DNA from: a virus
IMG/VR virus record: IMGVR_UViG_3300008952_000034
Location: 1 to 64,000 of that record
DNA: 64,000 nucleotides
Direction: 5' to 3' (one strand)
The notes under the pieces are model-generated. The model had not been told where the DNA came from and searched no databases. It saw only the letters and a program-made list of their open reading frames with translations. Numbering within the stretch: position 1 is the stretch's first letter; the number at the start of each line of letters is the position of its first letter. Both the position numbers and the translations under genes were made by a program. Below, piece by piece: positions 22,745-31,832 of this stretch.

Positions 22745-23017
22745 ATGACGTCACAAGTTCCTAAACGCACACGACAAATACAAAGGCATTACCTCGATAA
22801 AAAACAAGCAGAGAAGCATTGTATAGATATAGAACAATACTTTGAGCAGGAACTCCGAAGTTATATGAAATATGCTGTTAATGTAATACTACAAGGATCT
22901 ATACTAACTCATAGACAACGTGTAGATTTTATAAGAGGATGGATGCGTTCTTGGTTATCTGATGATAAGTTACACAAACGATTGCACAAACATAAGAATT
23001 CGTCTAGGCCTACTTAA
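22745..23017 (+). CDS. Hypothetical basic helical protein
   Basis: 90 aa, mostly helical and basic (KRTRQIQRHYLDKKQAEKH at the start, RGWMRSWLSDDKLHKRLHKHK at the end). No family recognised. Divergent from the polysaccharide operon and overlapping the convergent gene by 8 nt. Confidence 0.55.
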   Translation: MTSQVPKRTRQIQRHYLDKKQAEKHCIDIEQYFEQELRSYMKYAVNVILQGSILTHRQRVDFIRGWMRSWLSDDKLHKRLHKHKNSSRPT

Positions 23018-23210
23018 GAAGGTCAACGTTGTCTAGTTCACACACACCCCATATATGATCACCATGGGGAACATCGTTGAAATTTTTAGCATACTGTTCG
23101 CATATCTCTTGGCTCTCAAAATGCATACGATGCCATCCATCATAGTTCAATGATTCTGCTGTATGCCATCCACCATTTACTAAAAAATATACTACTAACG
23201 CCCATTTCAT
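23010..23210 (-). CDS. Putative exported small protein
   Basis: 66 aa with a hydrophobic N-terminus (WALVVYFLVNGGW), then HFESQEICEQYAKNF and WGVCELDNV, a two-cysteine layout also seen in the 11714 protein. The ATG is 6 nt from a TAAATA box. Confidence 0.55.
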   Translation of the reverse strand: MKWALVVYFLVNGGWHTAESLNYDGWHRMHFESQEICEQYAKNFNDVPHGDHIWGVCELDNVDLLK

Positions 23211-23254: not shown

Positions 23255-23434
23255 ATGGAAATAGTAGATACCAATTTTGTGTATGCTTTTATAGTAGCAT
23301 GGAATGACGTTTCTCGTGGTGTATTCCTCACTGAATACTTTGCTAGTTTAGACGAATGTATGTCATATTTGCAATCATGGATCCATGATCCCACTCAAGT
23401 TAATCTAGAGTGTATCCAATTAATTTCCGATTAG
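23255..23434 (+). CDS. Small hypothetical protein
   Basis: 59 aa soluble protein (YAFIVAWNDVSRGVFLTEYF, ECMSYLQSWIHD). Its compact pattern resembles the neighbouring 66-aa protein after that protein's signal region. It overlaps the convergent membrane-protein gene by 15 nt. Confidence 0.55.
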   Translation: MEIVDTNFVYAFIVAWNDVSRGVFLTEYFASLDECMSYLQSWIHDPTQVNLECIQLISD

Positions 23435-23689
23435 AGCGGCTATTATTATTAATGCTAGTGCATAATATGGATAGTATGACTTAATGTGACGCCACCATGT
23501 TTTACGAGTAAAAATTTTTTCCTGTGCAAAAATTTTAGATTTAGAAAACACGGTACCCACATCAGTTTCTATATTCCATAGTTGTGAGTCTCTTCGCCAT
23601 GGTTTGAGATCAAATATAATATAAAAGAAAACACCGCCTATAAAACAAATGAATAGAAAACCAAATATTACTTTAAGTATAGTAATCAT
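23420..23689 (-). CDS. Membrane protein (last of mini-membrane cassette)
   Basis: 89 aa with two membrane segments (near residues 3-27 and 70-88) and a basic central loop. The ATG at 23689 overlaps the previous stop by 4 nt (ATGA), which decides the start over an in-frame ATG 10 codons upstream. Last gene of a six-gene coupled chain. Confidence 0.6.
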   Translation of the reverse strand: MITILKVIFGFLFICFIGGVFFYIIFDLKPWRRDSQLWNIETDVGTVFSKSKIFAQEKIFTRKTWWRHIKSYYPYYALALIIIAALIGN

Positions 23690-23811
23690 GACTGGAATAC
23701 TAGATGTCCTTTCCACCATGCTAACAAAAGTGATGTGCTAGTTATTATTACCCAAAACCATACGAAGTCCCATAGTGTAGGACCTTTATCTTTATTTCCT
23801 TTAAAAGGCAT
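23686..23811 (-). CDS. Mini membrane protein
   Basis: 41 aa, one membrane segment (LWDFVWFWVIITSTSLLLAW) after a basic N-terminus. Overlaps the gene before by one base and the next by 4 nt. Confidence 0.55.
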   Translation of the reverse strand: MPFKGNKDKGPTLWDFVWFWVIITSTSLLLAWWKGHLVFQS

Positions 23812-23897
23812 TATACAGGTACTCCCTTCATATAAAGCATAGCCAGGAACATTACAAAACAAACCAATAAAAGTGCTGTTATTATATAAAATTTCAT
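23811..23897 (-). CDS. Mini membrane protein, 28 aa
   Basis: 28 aa, almost all one membrane helix (FYIITALLLVCFVMFLAML) with a short YMKGVPV tail. Overlaps its neighbours by 4 and 1 nt. Too small to trust alone; the unbroken overlap chain is the support. Confidence 0.5.
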   Translation of the reverse strand: MKFYIITALLLVCFVMFLAMLYMKGVPV

Positions 23898-23968
23898 TGT
23901 ACCTTCCATATTACCCATATACAGTATGGTATTGCTATTGAATAGTAGATAATAAACAGCCATTCCAT
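23894..23968 (-). CDS. Mini membrane protein, 24 aa
   Basis: 24 aa, a single aromatic-rich hydrophobic helix (WLFIIYYSIAIPYCIWVIW). Its stop overlaps the next ATG (ATGA) and its start the previous stop. Confidence 0.45.
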   Translation of the reverse strand: MEWLFIIYYSIAIPYCIWVIWKVQ

Positions 23969-24063
23969 TATCTAGTTGCCCACCACATTAATCCTATTAT
24001 TACAATAGCAACACCAAAATATAGCAATATAAAGAACAGTGTAACGTTGGGCTCTCCATGCAT
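23968..24063 (-). CDS. Mini membrane protein, 31 aa
   Basis: 31 aa: HGEPNVT then one membrane helix (LFFILLYFGVAIVIIGLMWW). Overlaps both neighbours by one base (TAATG type). Confidence 0.5.
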   Translation of the reverse strand: MHGEPNVTLFFILLYFGVAIVIIGLMWWATR

Positions 24064-24167
24064 TATAGATATACCCTATACAAGACATTCCATGTTAGTT
24101 GAAATATTATAAGCAGTGCTAATGTAATCAAAGCACCTAGAATTATGTAGGTAATCCATTGTTTCAT
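24063..24167 (-). CDS. Mini membrane protein, 34 aa
   Basis: 34 aa with one membrane helix (WITYIILGALITLALLIIF). First of the six-gene cassette; AATAAGTACTATTAT just upstream of the ATG could be a late-type promoter. Confidence 0.5.
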   Translation of the reverse strand: MKQWITYIILGALITLALLIIFQLTWNVLYRVYL

Positions 24168-24228
24168 ATAATAGTACTTATTGGCTATTGATGTGCTATA
24201 TACGTGTACACAGAGAGGAGACACACAC

Positions 24229-24450
24229 ATGACAACAAACAAAAATGGCTTTGAAATCAGAGCCGATATCTTAAAACTAGCACAAGATCATCTTCAAACA
24301 GAGTTTAGTTATGCCCAAAATCAATACGATCAAAGCATAACACAACCTGATTGGAAAGGTGGTACTGTGGCTAAACCTGTATATCCATGTACAAACGATG
24401 TAATCGAATGTGCTAAAGCGATGTATAACTTTGTAAACTCAAAAGTATAA
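24229..24450 (+). CDS. Conserved small phage protein
   Basis: 73 aa beginning TTNKNGFEIRADILKLAQDHL. I recognise this pattern from T4-like cyanophage genomes, where it is a common conserved protein without assigned function. An AGAGGAG site upstream of the ATG fixes this start rather than the in-frame TTG at 24181. Followed by a strong terminator. Confidence 0.75.
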   Translation: MTTNKNGFEIRADILKLAQDHLQTEFSYAQNQYDQSITQPDWKGGTVAKPVYPCTNDVIECAKAMYNFVNSKV

Positions 24451-24461
24451 GCAATAATCAT

Positions 24462-24508
24462 AGCGGCCTGGGTATAGTAACCTTTTTGGCCGCTGTGCAT
24501 TTTTTTTA
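24462..24508 (+). terminator. Rho-independent terminator
   Basis: AGCGGCC pairs with GGCCGCT across a 19-nt loop and is followed by a run of T. Ends the 24229 gene. Between here and 24663 I see no gene. Confidence 0.8.
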
Positions 24509-24663
24509 TATTGGGGGTATTTTATAGGCCACCTGGTGATTTTTAGACCATGGGGTTGCCATTTTACCAAATTTATCTTTCAAAAAAATTGCTATGCGAC
24601 CACCCCTTCAATAAAAAAGATTTTTCTACCACCCCACCCTTCAAACCACATCTGATGGTGTCA

Positions 24664-24691
24664 AGTGTAATGACAGCCCAATCATTACACT
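24664..24691 (+). promoter_or_regulatory. AGTGTAATGA inverted-repeat operator (copy 1)
   Basis: AGTGTAATGA and its reverse complement form arms around an 8-nt centre, just upstream of the -35 at 24702. The same site recurs at 42462 and 42780 before promoters of related genes. Confidence 0.7.
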
Positions 24692-24701
24692 ACAACTCCT
24701 A

Positions 24702-24729
24702 TTGACTCTTACTGCTTCTATGCTATTAT
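24702..24729 (+). promoter_or_regulatory. Early-family promoter, rightward
   Basis: TTGACT, 16-bp spacer, TGC-TATTAT extended -10, then GAAAGGAGTTGA ribosome-binding leader before the ATG at 24753. Confidence 0.7.
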
Positions 24730-24752
24730 TAAACTATAACGAAAGGAGTTGA

Positions 24753-24950
24753 ATGCCAAACATATCATCACAACAAGTAGCCTATCTAAAAAGCCTAGTC
24801 AAGTATAAGTCATACTCAGTACATCACAAGTATCACTCGCCTGCTCATATCAAGTTCAAGTCATATGCTAAAGCCAAAGCCTATTGCATAAAGCACAATC
24901 TTGACTATAAATCAAGTTGGGTCCTTACTACTGTCAATCACTGTATATAA
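24753..24950 (+). CDS. Small basic early protein (paralogue of 42558)
   Basis: 65 aa, basic and aromatic: VKYKSYSVHHKYHSP, AKAYCIKHNLDYKSSW, ending VLTTVNHC. About three quarters identical to the 64-aa protein at 42558, with the same operator, promoter and leader. No known family; a small regulatory or host-directed early protein is plausible. Confidence 0.7.
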   Translation: MPNISSQQVAYLKSLVKYKSYSVHHKYHSPAHIKFKSYAKAKAYCIKHNLDYKSSWVLTTVNHCI

Positions 24951-24965
24951 TAACCCAACATATGT

Positions 24966-24996
24966 ATAACACATTATATTCATTATAGTGTGTTAT
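24966..24996 (+). terminator. AT-rich inverted repeat after the 24753 gene
   Basis: ATAACACA pairs with TGTGTTAT and TTATA with TATAG inside, a 31-nt near-perfect hairpin 16 nt after the stop. It lacks a long T tail, so it may be a terminator, an RNA-stabilising end or an operator. Confidence 0.45.
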
Positions 24997-25017
24997 ATGT
25001 CATTAGTGCCGGAGGCC

Positions 25018-25480
25018 GATGTGGTAATCGTATTGCTCGGGCGGGGTAAACTCAGATTGGCTATGTGGTTATTGCATGATCGACTTACTTCATAAGTCAG
25101 GCCTTCTCTTCGTTCATGCCATATACACATAGAACTCTATACTATATAGGGGATTACCAATCCTTACCATACCAACCCAGCGTCCTACCAATCTCTACCA
25201 GCGTAGAAGGGTACCCATCGACCTTACCAAATACACCAAGTTAGAACACACCGGAAGCAGACATCAATAGGTCTCCATATTACCAACGCTTACCATTCCT
25301 TACCATCTCCGATAGCGTACCGACGGTATGGCATATTGTTCCAGATCGTACTCCGTCTCAACCATTCGCACGGTGGTCATATGGGCAGGATAGGTTAAGC
25401 GAAACAAAGTATTACCAAATAAAAATCCTTAGGATGGCCGGTATAGTTAAAATACGATATGCTTTTATTCCACCATACGA
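25018..25480. repeat. Non-coding region with phased TACCA repeats
   Basis: No gene is supported between 24951 and 25501. TACCA occurs ten times between 25155 and 25417, often as TTACCA and repeatedly exactly 10 bp apart (25155/25165, 25186/25196, 25281/25291/25301). A hairpin with arms GACTTA/TAAGTC sits at 25082-25098. The phasing puts sites on one face of the helix, as in iteron origins or multi-site operators. Confidence 0.5.
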
Positions 25481-25501
25481 CCACAATAGATATATAATGT
25501 T

Positions 25502-25684
25502 ATGCCTACCGAAAGAGAACGAGACAAATACAATCCAGAAATCAAGTACGACAACTCACCGTCCAATAGATTAAAGTTTCTAGATCGATACATATATAAC
25601 TTCTGCCTACCATGCCTCATTATAAAGTTCACCGTTATAGCATTAGCCATATATGGGTTATATAAAATCATATTCCCATCATAA
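25502..25684 (+). CDS. Small membrane protein
   Basis: 60 aa: charged N-terminus (PTERERDKYNPEIKYDN) and one C-terminal membrane segment (IKFTVIALAIYGLYKIIF). It lies isolated in a mostly non-coding region. No family recognised. Confidence 0.5.
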   Translation: MPTERERDKYNPEIKYDNSPSNRLKFLDRYIYNFCLPCLIIKFTVIALAIYGLYKIIFPS

Positions 25685-25729
25685 AAATCCTCAAGATAAT
25701 TGTATATTGTGATAGTACAATTCAAACTC

Positions 25730-25982
25730 TAGAGCTACCGCTGGGCTCAAAGGGTTGCGAAGCGAACTAGCGAAGCCGAGCTAGGTCTTTTACAATAGGA
25801 ATTATTATGTAGGATAGGCTTAGGAGAGCCTGGTCAAATCTGTCTTACGCGAAGGCCTGCGGCCGAGTTAGATCTATCGCCGAAAAAAATCGCCGGCGCT
25901 TATCGCTTCGCTCTGGGGTCACTCTTCCACCTACCGTTCAGGGGGAGGTGTCTGACAATATTGATTATGTCTAAATAATGTT
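25730..25982 (+). other. Structured GC-richer non-coding segment
   Basis: No reading frame is supported. Several compact hairpins can form: CTAGC/GCTAG, AGGCT/AGCCT, GGCC-tgc-GGCC and CACCT/AGGTG. GCGAAG or its complement recurs. At 25734 GCTACCGCT followed by CTCAA repeats the 3' end of the tRNA-like element at 25983. The whole could be one RNA of about 320 nt ending in that element, or a remnant of a recombined tRNA locus. Confidence 0.4.
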
Positions 25983-26055
25983 GGCGGTAGAGCTCGGGTA
26001 GATGAGCATCAGAATCATAAGCTGAATGCCGTGGGTGCAATTCCTGCTACCGCTA
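25983..26055 (+). tRNA. tRNA-Met-like element (CAT), degenerate
   Basis: Folds as a cloverleaf: acceptor GGCGGTA with TACCGCT (1-72 pair G-T), D stem GCTC/GAGC, anticodon stem with one A-G mismatch, loop ATCATAA reading CAT, and a T arm GTGGG/CCTGC. Deviations: G at position 8, T loop TGCAATT rather than TTCRANY, and no encoded CCA, unlike the three other tRNAs. It could be a divergent tRNA-Met, a tRNA pseudogene or a tRNA-like domain of a larger RNA. Confidence 0.5.
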
Positions 26056-26108
26056 CTCAAGACAATAGGCCCTATGCTTTTAACACTTGGGCCTACTGAT
26101 GACAATAA

Positions 26109-26471: not shown

Positions 26472-26654
26472 TTATTTCTTGAAATTCTCTAATAATTTGA
26501 ATACAATTACTAATGGTAGGAGTAATGTCCAAGCAAGGATTATCCATACTTCTTCTAGGGTCTTAAGTGGCTGGGCTCTACGGTTACTCAACGAGCCCAC
26601 CACTATTCTCTGGTTGGAGGGAGGTCCGACTTGAGAATTCTGTTTACCAACCAC
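26472..26654 (-). CDS. Small membrane protein
   Basis: 60 aa from a GTG start: polar N-terminal half, one membrane segment (WIILAWTLLLPLVIVFKLL) and a lysine tail. It overlaps the preceding mini gene by 11 nt and ends a leftward run. Confidence 0.5.
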   Translation of the reverse strand: MVGKQNSQVGPPSNQRIVVGSLSNRRAQPLKTLEEVWIILAWTLLLPLVIVFKLLENFKK

Positions 26655-26721
26655 TTGGTCTTCCTATCAGTAATACTAATAATGTGAAACAGGTTGCGAA
26701 TACAATTATATCAATTATCAT
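26644..26721 (-). CDS. Mini membrane protein, 25 aa
   Basis: 25 aa, one hydrophobic helix (IIDIIVFATCFTLLVLLIG). Overlaps the previous stop (ATGA) and the next gene. Supported mainly by the overlap chain. Confidence 0.45.
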   Translation of the reverse strand: MIIDIIVFATCFTLLVLLIGRPSGW

Positions 26722-26840
26722 TTGTACTTCTTTTTATTGAGTCTAACTAATGCTTCTAATTTACGATCAATCTTACGGAAGCCATAATATAGCAATATAA
26801 AGAAACCTACCACCAATAGTCCTAAAATAGTCTTTGTCAT
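26718..26840 (-). CDS. Mini membrane protein, 40 aa
   Basis: 40 aa: one membrane helix (TILGLLVVGFFILLYYGF) and a basic tail ending KKKYK. Its ATG overlaps the stop of the glucosaminidase gene by one base, so it may be a lysis accessory such as a small holin (inference). Confidence 0.5.
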   Translation of the reverse strand: MTKTILGLLVVGFFILLYYGFRKIDRKLEALVRLNKKKYK

Positions 26841-27487
26841 TATGGCAACTCTCTTTCTTTAATTGTTCTTAGAATGATTTTAGCATAATCTGGATTGGTA
26901 CTCCAGGCGTCTAATAATGATAATAACTTATTATAATCCCAAGTGCCCTTCTTAAGCTGAATCTTTCTCTCTACTCTAAATTCTGTATAGGCTGTGTGGG
27001 TATTAAGGATTCTTATCATATCTTTTACACTATCGCATTTCGTAGCATATTTCTTAAGGCCAAACTTCGCATCTGGCACATCCTTAGGCTTCATATGGTC
27101 TGACTCCAAGTCCCAAGTCCGTATGCCAAATAGGTTATTACCTTCTACTGAGAAACGAGATGTTCCCCATGCTGATTCAATACCTGCCATGGCAATTATG
27201 ATAGATGTTGGTACTCTACTATGCCTATCCGTAGTGAAGTTCAGATATTCAACACATTTACCTGTCGCATTAATGAATGAGTTGGCATTGTTGAACATAA
27301 ACTCTGGTTGGACTAATCCTAACTCTAGGATCTGCTCTAAATCCTTTTTATGGAATGTTTCTTCTAATTTTTCTACCGTTTGTTTATTGGGATTACTCGT
27401 ACCATACCAATATGATGCTCCTACCATGCCCATTATGATAAAGGCATATAATAACCCTAGATATAAATTTGTTAGTCCTTTTTTCAT
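26840..27487 (-). CDS. Membrane-anchored glucosaminidase/Bax-like cell-wall hydrolase
   Basis: 215 aa. One N-terminal membrane segment (LYLGLLYAFIIMGMVGASYW) places the enzyme in the periplasm. VPTSIIIAMAGIESAWGTS and NNLFGIRTW are the signature blocks of the Bax/mannosyl-glycoprotein endo-beta-N-acetylglucosaminidase-like family; the glutamate in GIESAWG is the likely catalytic acid. Probably peptidoglycan cleavage for lysis. Small membrane genes follow. Confidence 0.82.
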   Translation of the reverse strand: MKKGLTNLYLGLLYAFIIMGMVGASYWYGTSNPNKQTVEKLEETFHKKDLEQILELGLVQPEFMFNNANSFINATGKCVEYLNFTTDRHSRVPTSIIIAMAGIESAWGTSRFSVEGNNLFGIRTWDLESDHMKPKDVPDAKFGLKKYATKCDSVKDMIRILNTHTAYTEFRVERKIQLKKGTWDYNKLLSLLDAWSTNPDYAKIILRTIKERELP

Positions 27488-29551: not shown

Positions 29552-29862
29552 TGTCCCTCTATTGAAGCCGTTTGATTTTCAACAACTCTTAGGCCGGCTT
29601 CAGTTAATGCCCTTTGAATTGCTATTCGTTTACCGAATTCTGTATTTCCTTCTTCTGGTGTGTATCTATAAGTCCAATCTGGAGAACCATCTCCATTTGT
29701 ATGACCTCTAGGATACTTCTTACCATTAATTCTTATTAACCAACCTGCGACATTTACTACATCCATTTCATCTGAATCTTTATGTCTTCTTTCATAGTAA
29801 TCATCGTTAGTCCATTGAGCTTGTATCTTTAAAGGTAATCCGTTATCTGCTATTAATTTCAT
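29548..29862 (-). CDS. Hypothetical early protein
   Basis: 104 aa soluble protein (GWLIRINGKKYPRGHTNGDG, GKRIAIQRALTEAGLRVVEN). The ATG at 29862 overlaps the preceding stop (ATGA), which decides this start. No family recognised. Confidence 0.6.
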   Translation of the reverse strand: MKLIADNGLPLKIQAQWTNDDYYERRHKDSDEMDVVNVAGWLIRINGKKYPRGHTNGDGSPDWTYRYTPEEGNTEFGKRIAIQRALTEAGLRVVENQTASIEGQ

Positions 29863-30053
29863 TCTTTCACTTCCAACTCTTCCCAATCTGCTTCTTCTGT
29901 TGAGTCTTGTTTTTTCTTATATTTTTTTAAGGCAGATGTGTCTCCACTACCGATTGCCTTAAAGAATTCACTCATTGCTGACCCTTTTTCCTTCACCGTC
30001 TGACATCCGGACAGCATTATCACAGCAACTATCAATCCAAGGTATCTAATCAT
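29859..30053 (-). CDS. Putative lipoprotein
   Basis: 64 aa from MIRYLGLIVAVIMLSGCQ, a signal peptide with lipobox (LSGC, Cys about residue 17), followed by a lysine-rich and then acidic tail. Overlaps the zinc-ribbon gene by 8 nt. Confidence 0.6.
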   Translation of the reverse strand: MIRYLGLIVAVIMLSGCQTVKEKGSAMSEFFKAIGSGDTSALKKYKKKQDSTEEADWEELEVKE

Positions 30054-30225
30054 GATATCTATCCGTAAAGTTTTTAGGCAAACCATTTGGGTCATACTGC
30101 TCATCCTTCTTACAATTATCACAAGTAATAACCATTCTAGGTTCATCACCAATCAATAAACTACCACAAGTATCACATTCCAAAGTGGCTTTATTTTCAT
30201 AAAAGTCTTTAGTCCAATCGTCCAT
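30046..30225 (-). CDS. Small zinc-ribbon protein
   Basis: 59 aa with LECDTCGSLL and VITCDNCKKD, two CxxC knuckles that should bind one zinc. Overlaps both neighbours (8 nt and 1 nt). Possibly a regulator of transcription or translation, by analogy with other phage zinc ribbons. Confidence 0.65.
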   Translation of the reverse strand: MDDWTKDFYENKATLECDTCGSLLIGDEPRMVITCDNCKKDEQYDPNGLPKNFTDRYHD

Positions 30226-30374
30226 TATTTCTTTTCCTTCATTGCTATTACTTCATCAATATCATCACAAAGTTCTGGAAGATGTGTTTCAATCTTTTCA
30301 ATAATTGTTTCTTTGTAAGCCTTTAATTCTTCTACTGACATATCCATTAAATCTTGTTCTCTTCCACCAGTCAT
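30225..30374 (-). CDS. Small helical early protein
   Basis: 49 aa with SVEELKAYKETIIEKIE amphipathic helix and an acidic DDIDEV segment. Start and stop overlap neighbours by one base each. Confidence 0.55.
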   Translation of the reverse strand: MTGGREQDLMDMSVEELKAYKETIIEKIETHLPELCDDIDEVIAMKEKK

Positions 30375-30709
30375 TATACCTTCTCCTTTAATGTATGAAT
30401 TGGATCATCTTCATATGGTTCCCAATGAAGTTCATTAGTTTCTTCTAAATCATACCATTGATCTTCTATTGCTTTATATTCTTCTATCAATTCTGATGGC
30501 TCCATATTATGAAAACCTTTAAAGCCACCCTCTAAAATATATGTTAGAGTATCATAATCACCACACTTGTAATCATAATAGATGCCGTGAATCTCAACTT
30601 GTAGACATCTTTCAGCCATTACATATGGAGTTAGTTTCATCGCTCTCTCGTCTTCATATAAATGATCTTCGTGTCTATCAAATATAATTTCTTTTAATCT
30701 AGTTCCCAT
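30374..30709 (-). CDS. Acidic early protein
   Basis: 111 aa, acidic with many aromatic residues (GIYYDYKCGDYDTLTYIL, IEDQWYDLEETNEL). The ATG at 30709 has AAGGAG 5 nt upstream and overlaps the previous stop by one base, so it is preferred over an ATG nine codons upstream. Confidence 0.6.
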   Translation of the reverse strand: MGTRLKEIIFDRHEDHLYEDERAMKLTPYVMAERCLQVEIHGIYYDYKCGDYDTLTYILEGGFKGFHNMEPSELIEEYKAIEDQWYDLEETNELHWEPYEDDPIHTLKEKV

Positions 30710-30861
30710 TATATCTCCTTGAAAATACCTTTCCATGGTCTTGCATCTGATCCTATTTGAAAAGGGTTTCTTTTTGTAGTAGATCCTTTTTTTCGTCCAC
30801 CTTTGTTTCTATGAATTCTTCTAGGTTTTCTATTTGTAGTCATATTCTTTTTAGATGTCAT
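30709..30861 (-). CDS. Small strongly basic protein
   Basis: 50 aa, over 30% Lys/Arg in the first 32 residues (NRKPRRIHRNKGGRKKG), likely nucleic-acid binding. Coupled by overlaps on both sides. Confidence 0.55.
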   Translation of the reverse strand: MTSKKNMTTNRKPRRIHRNKGGRKKGSTTKRNPFQIGSDARPWKGIFKEI

Positions 30862-30992
30862 TGGTCTTCACCTTCTTCATCTTCTTCAAAAAGTTCTTCT
30901 AATTCTTTTAGAACTTTTGGATCTTCTAATTTGTCCCAATTGATTGTTTTATTAAAGCCAAAGGGATCATTACTTGTTTTCATCTTTTTCAT
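30858..30992 (-). CDS. Small acidic protein
   Basis: 44 aa ending in a run of E and D (ELEELFEEDEEGEDQ). Adjacent to a strongly basic 50-aa protein with 4-nt overlap, so the two could form a charge-complementary pair (inference). Confidence 0.5.
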   Translation of the reverse strand: MKKMKTSNDPFGFNKTINWDKLEDPKVLKELEELFEEDEEGEDQ

Positions 30993-31162
30993 ATTATATT
31001 CAACAAACCTAAAATGAATGGAACATAACAAAAAATCGCTATCGTTCCAGTTATCTTAGAATAAAATAATACCCTTTTATTATCCAAAGCCGTACCAACT
31101 CCTAACAAACATACCGTTAGAACATAAAATATGGCGAAACCTGGTATTATATATTGCATCAT
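30989..31162 (-). CDS. Small membrane protein, two helices
   Basis: 57 aa with two membrane segments (near residues 4-22 and 38-57) joined by a basic loop LDNKRVLFYSK; a hairpin-like topology. ATGA overlaps on both sides. Confidence 0.5.
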   Translation of the reverse strand: MMQYIIPGFAIFYVLTVCLLGVGTALDNKRVLFYSKITGTIAIFCYVPFILGLLNII

Positions 31163-31368
31163 TGGTTTTCCTCCTCTTCATCTTCATCTTCATCTTCATC
31201 TTCTTCATCTTCTTCATTTAAAAAGAATTCATTACAATGTGCCATATCTGCCACATCATCTTCTGACATATATTTTAGACAAGCCATTATAACCATATCT
31301 TTATCTAAGATACCATCATCAACCATCTCTAAAATCTTGTTCGTTGCTTCTCTAACATTAACTGACAT
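31159..31368 (-). CDS. Early protein with poly-acidic tail
   Basis: 69 aa: helical N-terminal 50 residues (REATNKILEMVDDGILDKDM), then an almost pure Glu/Asp tail encoded by a TCTTCA microsatellite. Such tails can mimic DNA or bind basic proteins. Confidence 0.6.
   Translation of the reverse strand: MSVNVREATNKILEMVDDGILDKDMVIMACLKYMSEDDVADMAHCNEFFLNEEDEEDEDEDEDEEEENQ
31170..31215. repeat. TCTTCA hexanucleotide microsatellite
   Basis: Near-perfect TCTTCA/TCT units encode the acidic tail of the gene at 31368 on the minus strand. Length variation between phage isolates is expected. Confidence 0.7.
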
Positions 31369-31832
31369 TAAAATGGTATCTCACTTTCTTTCGTTTTAAT
31401 TTTTTCATCAGATGTTTCTAATTCTTCTTTTTTCCATCTATAAGAATCAGTAGTCCAATCTGGATCTTCATAATTTTCATAATGAATATCTTTGTCGCTA
31501 TCCCAATCTTCATATGGTACACATTCTTCTATCTTTTGAACTCTAGGTTCTCTACCATATTTCTCATAATCTATTTCTGCTTGTTGGTCCCAATTATGGT
31601 CATAGTATTTCATTTCAACTGGCTCATCACCATAGTATCCATCTTGCCATTCAATCTTTTCAATGCCACCGTGTTCTTGTACGGCATCTTCCGCTTCTTC
31701 TTTTGAATTGGCAACCACTTCATAATCAACTTCTACATTGTAGAACTTTTTAACCTTAAATTTCTGCTTACCGATATCCTGGTGTGGATTATCTTTTTTA
31801 TATGTTCCGTTTATTATTTCTATTTTTTGCAT
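31368..31832 (-). CDS. Acidic early protein
   Basis: 154 aa, acidic and aromatic (DQQAEIDYEKYGREP, DWDSDKDIHYENYEDPDW). It starts MQKI, like the proteins at 39230 and 33524 (MQK). GGAGAAAGTTGAA leader after promoter 31857. No family recognised. Confidence 0.6.
   Translation of the reverse strand: MQKIEIINGTYKKDNPHQDIGKQKFKVKKFYNVEVDYEVVANSKEEAEDAVQEHGGIEKIEWQDGYYGDEPVEMKYYDHNWDQQAEIDYEKYGREPRVQKIEECVPYEDWDSDKDIHYENYEDPDWTTDSYRWKKEELETSDEKIKTKESEIPF

What the first reader, a model, noticed from the sequence alone, without database searches (positions are those of the whole stretch)
23420..24167. Six mini membrane proteins with 1- or 4-nt stop/start overlaps
Genes of 34, 31, 24, 28, 41 and 89 codons follow one another without gap, each with a single (the last with two) membrane helix. 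Standard gene finders miss most of them. Perfect overlap in six consecutive genes is strong evidence for real translation. They may form a small membrane complex or act as toxins, holins or superinfection-exclusion factors.
Basis: seen in the sequence. Interest (0 to 1): 0.75.

Follow-up and report, generated by a model that had tools for sequence, protein, structure and literature searches.

The report
Phage operon of six micro membrane proteins
A marine T4-like virus of bacteria carries six tiny, back-to-back genes for membrane-spanning micro-proteins; at least four are clearly real genes that recur, reshuffled, in relatives (in one of which a member lies directly behind the cell-wall-cutting lysis enzyme), but what they do is untested.

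Summary
On the minus strand, 24167-23420 is tiled by six ATG ORFs (34, 31, 24, 28, 41, 89 aa) overlapping by 1, 1, 4, 1 and 4 nt. Shuffles of the whole window never gave more than four such ORFs in a row. Pooled codon usage fits these frames and no other. P2 and P3 have no relative outside a near-identical contig. Overlap itself is not special here: the phage has other coupled runs of 9, 5, 5, 4 and 4 genes. All six being membrane proteins is unusual (6/6 against 21/57, p = 0.004). In contig L150 the order is P1-P5-P4-M53, again tightly joined; in L011 the P4 relative overlaps the endolysin stop. Best reading: a modular, translationally coupled cassette of inner-membrane microproteins in a T4-like, probably Pelagibacter-type, phage, most likely accessory to lysis (about 35%); host-membrane modulation and superinfection exclusion are live rivals. 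No holin, toxin or exclusion family was matched.

The parts
24063..24167 (-). P1, 34 aa, one predicted helix; first gene of the unit
   Evidence: relative in L150 4715-4822 (44% identity, E 2.4e-6 in a search of that locus; above all 2000 class-preserving shuffles; its start supports ATG at 24167)
23968..24063 (-). P2, 31 aa, one predicted helix; 1-nt overlap with P1
   Evidence: no independent relative found
23894..23968 (-). P3, 24 aa, one predicted helix; 1-nt overlap with P2
   Evidence: no independent relative; highest per-codon usage score of the six
23811..23897 (-). P4, 28 aa, one predicted helix; 4-nt overlap with P3; GGAAGG 4 nt ahead of the start
   Evidence: relatives in L150 5001-5096 (57%) and, overlapping the endolysin stop by 1 nt, L011 12249-12338 (46%)
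23686..23811 (-). P5, 41 aa, one predicted helix with a basic N-terminus; 1-nt overlap with P4
   Evidence: relative in L150 4819-5004 (33%, 1 of 2000 shuffles as high; shared W(W/Y)KGH motif)
23420..23689 (-). P6, 89 aa, two predicted helices; 4-nt overlap with P5; residues 1-33 are a conserved mini-protein, the rest has no relative
   Evidence: 70-73% identity to 38-45 aa genes in L004-L008; pN 0.15, pS 0.86; model
24168..24228 (.). 61-nt divergent intergenic stretch; the likely start region of the six-gene unit
   Evidence: lies between P1 and the plus-strand 73-aa gene 24229-24450; no promoter match better than chance
23255..23434 (+). U59, convergent gene that overlaps the end of P6 by 15 nt and bounds the unit
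   Evidence: 56% identical relative in L150 2786-2971
23010..23210 (-). D66, conserved neighbour used to establish synteny
   Evidence: 71% identical relative in L150 4080-4277
26840..27487 (-). Endolysin: glucosaminidase with N-terminal membrane anchor; context for the lysis reading
   Evidence: Pfam PF01832 3.2e-16; PHROG endolysins; Pelagibacter phage relatives
26718..26840 (-). E40, mini membrane protein coupled to the endolysin (1-nt overlap); same kind as the six
   Evidence: 67% identical relative in L011 11340-11465, two genes upstream of its endolysin
26644..26721 (-). E25, 25-aa mini membrane protein coupled to E40 (4-nt overlap); member of a widely conserved family
   Evidence: 12 distinct peptides in 24 locus hits

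Best explanation
Shown by sequence: a six-gene, all-membrane cassette in a T4-like marine phage, bounded by a divergent gene upstream and a convergent gene downstream, with every internal start overlapping the previous stop. Some of its genes belong to a pool of micro-genes that in relatives stand in another order or inside the endolysin operon. Inferred: one mRNA is read by termination-reinitiation, giving linked amounts of small inner-membrane proteins (one span each, P6 a hairpin). Most likely they are accessory lysis factors: very small holin/pinholin- or antiholin-like helices that influence when the inner membrane is depolarised and the membrane-anchored glucosaminidase endolysin acts. 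The coding claim I hold at about 0.95 (lower, about 0.85, for P2 and P3 singly); the lysis role at about 0.35.
For: Coding: run length against shuffles, codon usage (+12.7 bits against -22.7 and -26.7 for shifted frames, 0 of 5000 recodings), relatives with pN below pS. Modularity: L150 has P1-P5-P4-M53 joined by -4, -4 and 0 nt next to conserved neighbours. Lysis link: in L011 the P4 relative overlaps the endolysin stop, and M53 and E40 lie in the same run; in the window E40 and E25 follow the endolysin with 1- and 4-nt overlaps. The endolysin carries an N-terminal helix rich in small residues, as SAR endolysins do, which are activated by pinholins (PMC9636201, PMC12642591), and none of the small membrane proteins of the window that were scanned matches a holin family. 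Coupling by 1- and 4-nt overlaps is experimentally established in bacteria (PMC6728339, PMC10666635).
Against: In the window the cassette is 2.5 kb from the endolysin and separated from it by a non-coding region and plus-strand genes. Mini membrane genes also lie elsewhere in this genome (30-42 kb), and the P6-like and E25-like genes sit in tail or other regions of distant phages. Cultured pelagiphages with a related endolysin show no detectable cassette relative. Helices of 24-41 aa are shorter than known holins. The weak holin and spanin hits for the L150 proteins (E 0.04) are at chance level for membrane helices.
Confidence: 0.36

Rival explanations
1. Unrelated micro-proteins packed together: each gene independently tunes some host membrane protein (transporter, respiratory or secretion component) early in infection, like other small phage takeover proteins; they share an operon only because the genome is compact and small genes shuffle easily.
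For: Overlap packing is genome-wide; gene content and order differ between relatives; mini membrane genes occur in many unrelated places.
Against: All six being membrane proteins is more than expected (p = 0.004), and families recur together (P1, P4, P5 in L150).
Confidence: 0.3
2. Superinfection-exclusion or immunity factors: single helices that sit in the inner membrane and block DNA entry of a second phage, with variable gene content reflecting competition between phages.
For: Small membrane proteins are a common form of exclusion factor (general knowledge, for example T4 Imm); rapid turnover of gene content. The only exclusion-like hit in the window is a weak one for a different gene, 29859-30053 (E 0.003).
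Against: No match of the six to any PHROG exclusion family or PADLOC model.
Confidence: 0.22
3. Chance ORFs in AT-rich DNA, or remnants of one longer broken gene.
For: AT-rich DNA easily gives hydrophobic peptides (22% of shuffled ORFs); P2 and P3 lack independent relatives; the P1 codon score is neutral.
Against: Run length, pooled codon usage, conserved relatives and substitution pattern all speak against it.
Confidence: 0.03

Closest known systems
Pinholin / SAR-endolysin lysis systems (phage 21 S21 with its SAR endolysin; phage N4 gp63 and gp61)
   Same: Small membrane proteins whose relatives are encoded beside a membrane-anchored endolysin; no recognisable sequence family is expected for holins.
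   Different: Known ones are about 68-110 aa; here helices of 24-41 aa, several at once, in the window not adjacent to the endolysin. No function tested.
Phage small (under 100 aa) proteins, as reviewed in PMC11323111
   Same: Short, poorly annotated, phage-encoded.
   Different: The families here have no match in Pfam, NCBIfam or PHROGs, and they form one run of six membrane proteins.
Overlapping gene pairs with termination-reinitiation (PMC6728339, PMC10666635)
   Same: The same -4 and -1 nt overlaps.
   Different: The described cases are mainly pairs of ordinary-sized genes; here five consecutive junctions link micro-genes. Coupling was not measured.
T4-like pelagiphages HTVC008M and Mosig EXVC030M (Kyanoviridae)
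   Same: Related glucosaminidase endolysin (32.8% and 37.6% identity).
   Different: No detectable relative of the cassette in either genome, and no run of mini membrane genes at their endolysin.

Membership tests
Holins / pinholins | Match to a known holin family | tested here: not met
   No Pfam, NCBIfam or PHROG holin match for the six. One E 0.045 hit for L150 M53 is not reproduced by its L011 relative.
Holins / pinholins | Gene beside the endolysin | tested here: inconclusive
   Not adjacent in the window (2.5 kb away); the P4 relative is adjacent in L011.
Holins / pinholins | Forms holes, depolarises the membrane and triggers lysis at a set time | not testable with these tools
   Needs expression assays.
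Superinfection-exclusion proteins | Match to a known exclusion family (PHROG) | tested here: not met
   the weak Cor hit is to a different gene of the window.
Superinfection-exclusion proteins | Blocks a second phage | not testable with these tools
   Needs a challenge assay.
Toxin or anti-phage defence proteins | Match to a known toxin or defence family | tested here: not met
   PADLOC: only an E 0.02 chance-level hit of P3; nothing in Pfam or NCBIfam.
Translationally coupled operon (termination-reinitiation) | Short (-1 or -4 nt) overlaps in co-directed genes | tested here: met
   All five junctions; overlaps or abutment re-formed in rearranged L150.
Translationally coupled operon (termination-reinitiation) | Downstream translation depends on upstream translation | not testable with these tools
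   Needs reporter fusions or ribosome profiling.

The most novel reading that the evidence does not exclude
The cassette encodes one hetero-oligomeric membrane device: several micro-helices made in linked amounts by chained termination-reinitiation, inserted together and assembled into a pore or regulator of lysis, whose subunits are swapped between phages as modules.
Probability: 0.13. Interest if true: 0.75.

Novelty: new variant of a known kind. Interest (0 to 1): 0.42.

Why it matters
Single-span micro-proteins of 24-41 aa are easily lost in annotation. Here four of six can be shown from sequence alone to be conserved genes, and the comparison shows how such genes travel: as coupled modules that re-form tight stop/start junctions after rearrangement and share families with the endolysin operon. 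If the cassette controls lysis, it would offer a candidate for the unrecognised holin of marine T4-like phages, and a small test bed for the assembly of membrane complexes from chained micro-genes.

Tried and rejected
Isolate genomes: no DNA match and no protein match of the cassette (the low-complexity filter may mask membrane helices); a direct search of HTVC008M and Mosig also gave nothing. A concatenated P1-P5 query wasted patterns on junctions and found only the same-sample contig. ATPase and endolysin queries were used to fetch neighbourhoods; few reach the cassette, because the close relatives' contigs end in the non-coding region beyond the endolysin. P6 residues 1-33 in bacterial genomes: none. 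Weak hits rejected as composition effects of membrane helices: synaptobrevin, Phr, S1FA, PsbL, CrgA, ThsB, phrog_14464, and the holin and spanin hits of L150 proteins. Chance ORFs rejected. The promoter and terminator scan was no better than shuffles. A resemblance of an L012 ORF to P2 (WWAS/WWAT ending) is too weak to count, as is P1 against a 30-aa ORF of L016 (8 of 2000 shuffles as high, among many comparisons).

Full report
What is there. Six ATG-started ORFs tile the minus strand from 24167 to 23420 without a gap. P1 to P5 are 24-41 aa with one hydrophobic helix each; P6 is 89 aa with two. Junction overlaps are 1, 1, 4, 1 and 4 nt. The unit is bounded: upstream, 61 nt separate P1 from a divergent 73-aa gene that has a good ribosome-site sequence and a relative in L098, near clamp-loader-like and dUTPase-like genes (those two names are my reading of the translations). 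Downstream, P6 runs 15 nt into the convergent gene U59, which is conserved in L150. So the six are probably transcribed as one unit of their own. P4 and P5 have purine-rich, ribosome-site-like sequences 4 and 10 nt ahead of their starts; P1 has none.

More than chance. In 200 dinucleotide shuffles of the whole window, both strands, the longest run of coupled ATG ORFs of at least 24 aa was four, in 2 shuffles. But the same scan finds runs of 9, 5, 5, 4 and 4 genes between 30 and 42 kb on this strand. Overlap is therefore the general packing style of this phage and not a mark of this cluster. What is special is that all six are membrane proteins, against 21 of 57 other coupled small ORF calls (Fisher p = 0.004). 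The 57 are mechanical calls and include doubtful antisense ORFs, so this figure is approximate.

Coding evidence. A synonymous-codon model trained on 15 larger ORFs scores the six frames together at +12.7 bits, their shifted frames at -22.7 and -26.7, and none of 5000 random synonymous recodings as high. Single genes are too short to judge one by one: P1 and P6 are near zero, and some accepted neighbouring genes score near zero too. The same-sample contig L003/L009 differs in the cassette at two sites, both synonymous in P6; it is not an independent line of evidence.

Independent relatives. A search with P4 (window and L011) found L150 (contig IMGVR_UViG_3300009103_001286). L150 carries relatives of U59 (56%) and D66 (71%), then a run of P1-like (35 aa), P5-like (61 aa), P4-like (31 aa) and a 53-aa membrane protein, M53, joined by -4, -4 and 0 nt. 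Gene order differs (P5 before P4), and P2, P3 and P6 are absent, yet the junctions are again tight. Scores of the P1, P4 and P6 relatives exceed all 2000 shuffles that keep the hydrophobic/polar pattern; P5 exceeds 1999 of 2000. pN/pS: P4 0.32/0.61 and 0.34/0.80, P1 0.41/0.54, P5 0.39/0.61, P6 residues 1-33 0.15/0.86. The P1 and P5 values are weak evidence on their own, because divergence is high and the genes are short. P2 and P3 rest on tiling, hydropathy and pooled codon usage only.

P6 is composite. Its first 33 residues are about 70-73% identical to a 38-45 aa single-helix gene in L004-L008 that lies after a large protein with membrane segments in the tail-gene region and before an Fe-S-scaffold-like gene (neighbour names are my reading of the sequences). 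The remaining 56 residues, with a basic linker and a second helix, have no relative found. A single-sequence model gives helices 2-27, 34-42 and 51-88 with modest confidence.

Link to lysis. In L011, a relative of this phage (ATPase 89% identical), the run after the ATPase is M53, a 34-aa ORF, E40, a 40-aa ORF, endolysin, P4-like, E25; most junctions overlap, and the P4-like start (GTG) overlaps the endolysin stop by 1 nt. In the window the endolysin is followed by E40 and E25 with 1- and 4-nt overlaps. So P4, and the M53 of the L150 cassette, also occur in an endolysin operon. The endolysin is a glucosaminidase (Pfam 3.2e-16) with an N-terminal helix rich in small residues, as in membrane-anchored SAR endolysins, which are activated when pinholins depolarise the membrane (PMC9636201, PMC12642591); that it is a SAR endolysin is inference. 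None of the small membrane proteins of the window that were scanned matches a holin; not every gene was scanned. This makes lysis control the best single guess, but mini membrane genes also lie elsewhere in the genome and in tail regions of other phages, so the link is only suggestive.

Which phage. The window encodes a DnaB-like helicase (phrog_19), a DNA ligase and the phrog_1250 ATPase. Its endolysin finds Pelagibacter phages, among them the Kyanoviridae HTVC008M and Mosig. A T4-like, probably pelagiphage-type virus is likely; the host is inferred, not shown. Those two isolates have no detectable relative of the cassette.

How it most likely works. Shown: conserved coding for four of six, the coupling signature, and modular rearrangement. 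Inferred: chained termination-reinitiation yields linked amounts of the micro-proteins (mechanism known from PMC6728339 and PMC10666635, which also reports that short overlaps are enriched in subunits of heteromeric complexes); they insert in the inner membrane. Charge distribution suggests a cytoplasmic linker for P6 and a cytoplasmic C-terminus for P2 and P3. Most likely role: accessory lysis factors (about 0.35), against unrelated host-membrane modulators (0.30) and superinfection exclusion (0.22).

Novelty. Phage small membrane proteins and coupled overlapping genes are known kinds. The six have no match in Pfam, NCBIfam, PHROGs or PADLOC above chance level, and I found no description of an all-membrane coupled micro-gene cassette in the papers searched (open-licence papers only; a key survey of small phage genes, Fremin et al. 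2022, was not held). I rate it a new variant of a known kind, of moderate interest.

Noticed in passing
window 26644-26721 (-); also L011, L012, L016, L032, L033, L035, L037, L038, L039, L052, L060, L072, L073, L078, L083: A 24-26 aa single-helix protein (M-ELIVFATVFTLLVLLTG) is conserved in marine T4-like phages: 12 distinct peptides in 24 locus hits, usually joined by 0-4 nt overlaps to its neighbours; pN 0.07 against pS 0.84 between two of them. It is a cleaner subject for a functional study than the six genes given.
   Followed up: partly
window 24480-26100; L011 12410-13809: Long non-coding stretch between the endolysin operon and the cassette, with similar-looking motifs in both (runs like CCACCCCA and long A/T tracts). 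A tRNA lies at 25983-26055 (missed by ARAGORN), and tRNA-Leu and tRNA-Thr at the matching place in L013 and L014. Contigs of close relatives (L010-L015) end in or near it, possibly a repeat or a genome end.
   Followed up: partly
window 30046-31687 (-): Run of nine small genes joined by 1- or 4-nt overlaps, mostly soluble and acidic: longer than the run reported, and likewise of unknown function.
   Followed up: no
window 29859-30053 (-): Small lipoprotein-like gene with weak PHROG hits to Cor superinfection exclusion (E 0.003) and to Rz-like spanin (E 0.015); a similar gene is in L012.
   Followed up: no
window 23010-23210 (-); L150 3894-4477 and 5921-6256: D66 resembles a family of small proteins beginning MKWxLxVYF that seems to occur in several copies in L150 and once in L155 and L156. 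Function unknown.
   Followed up: no
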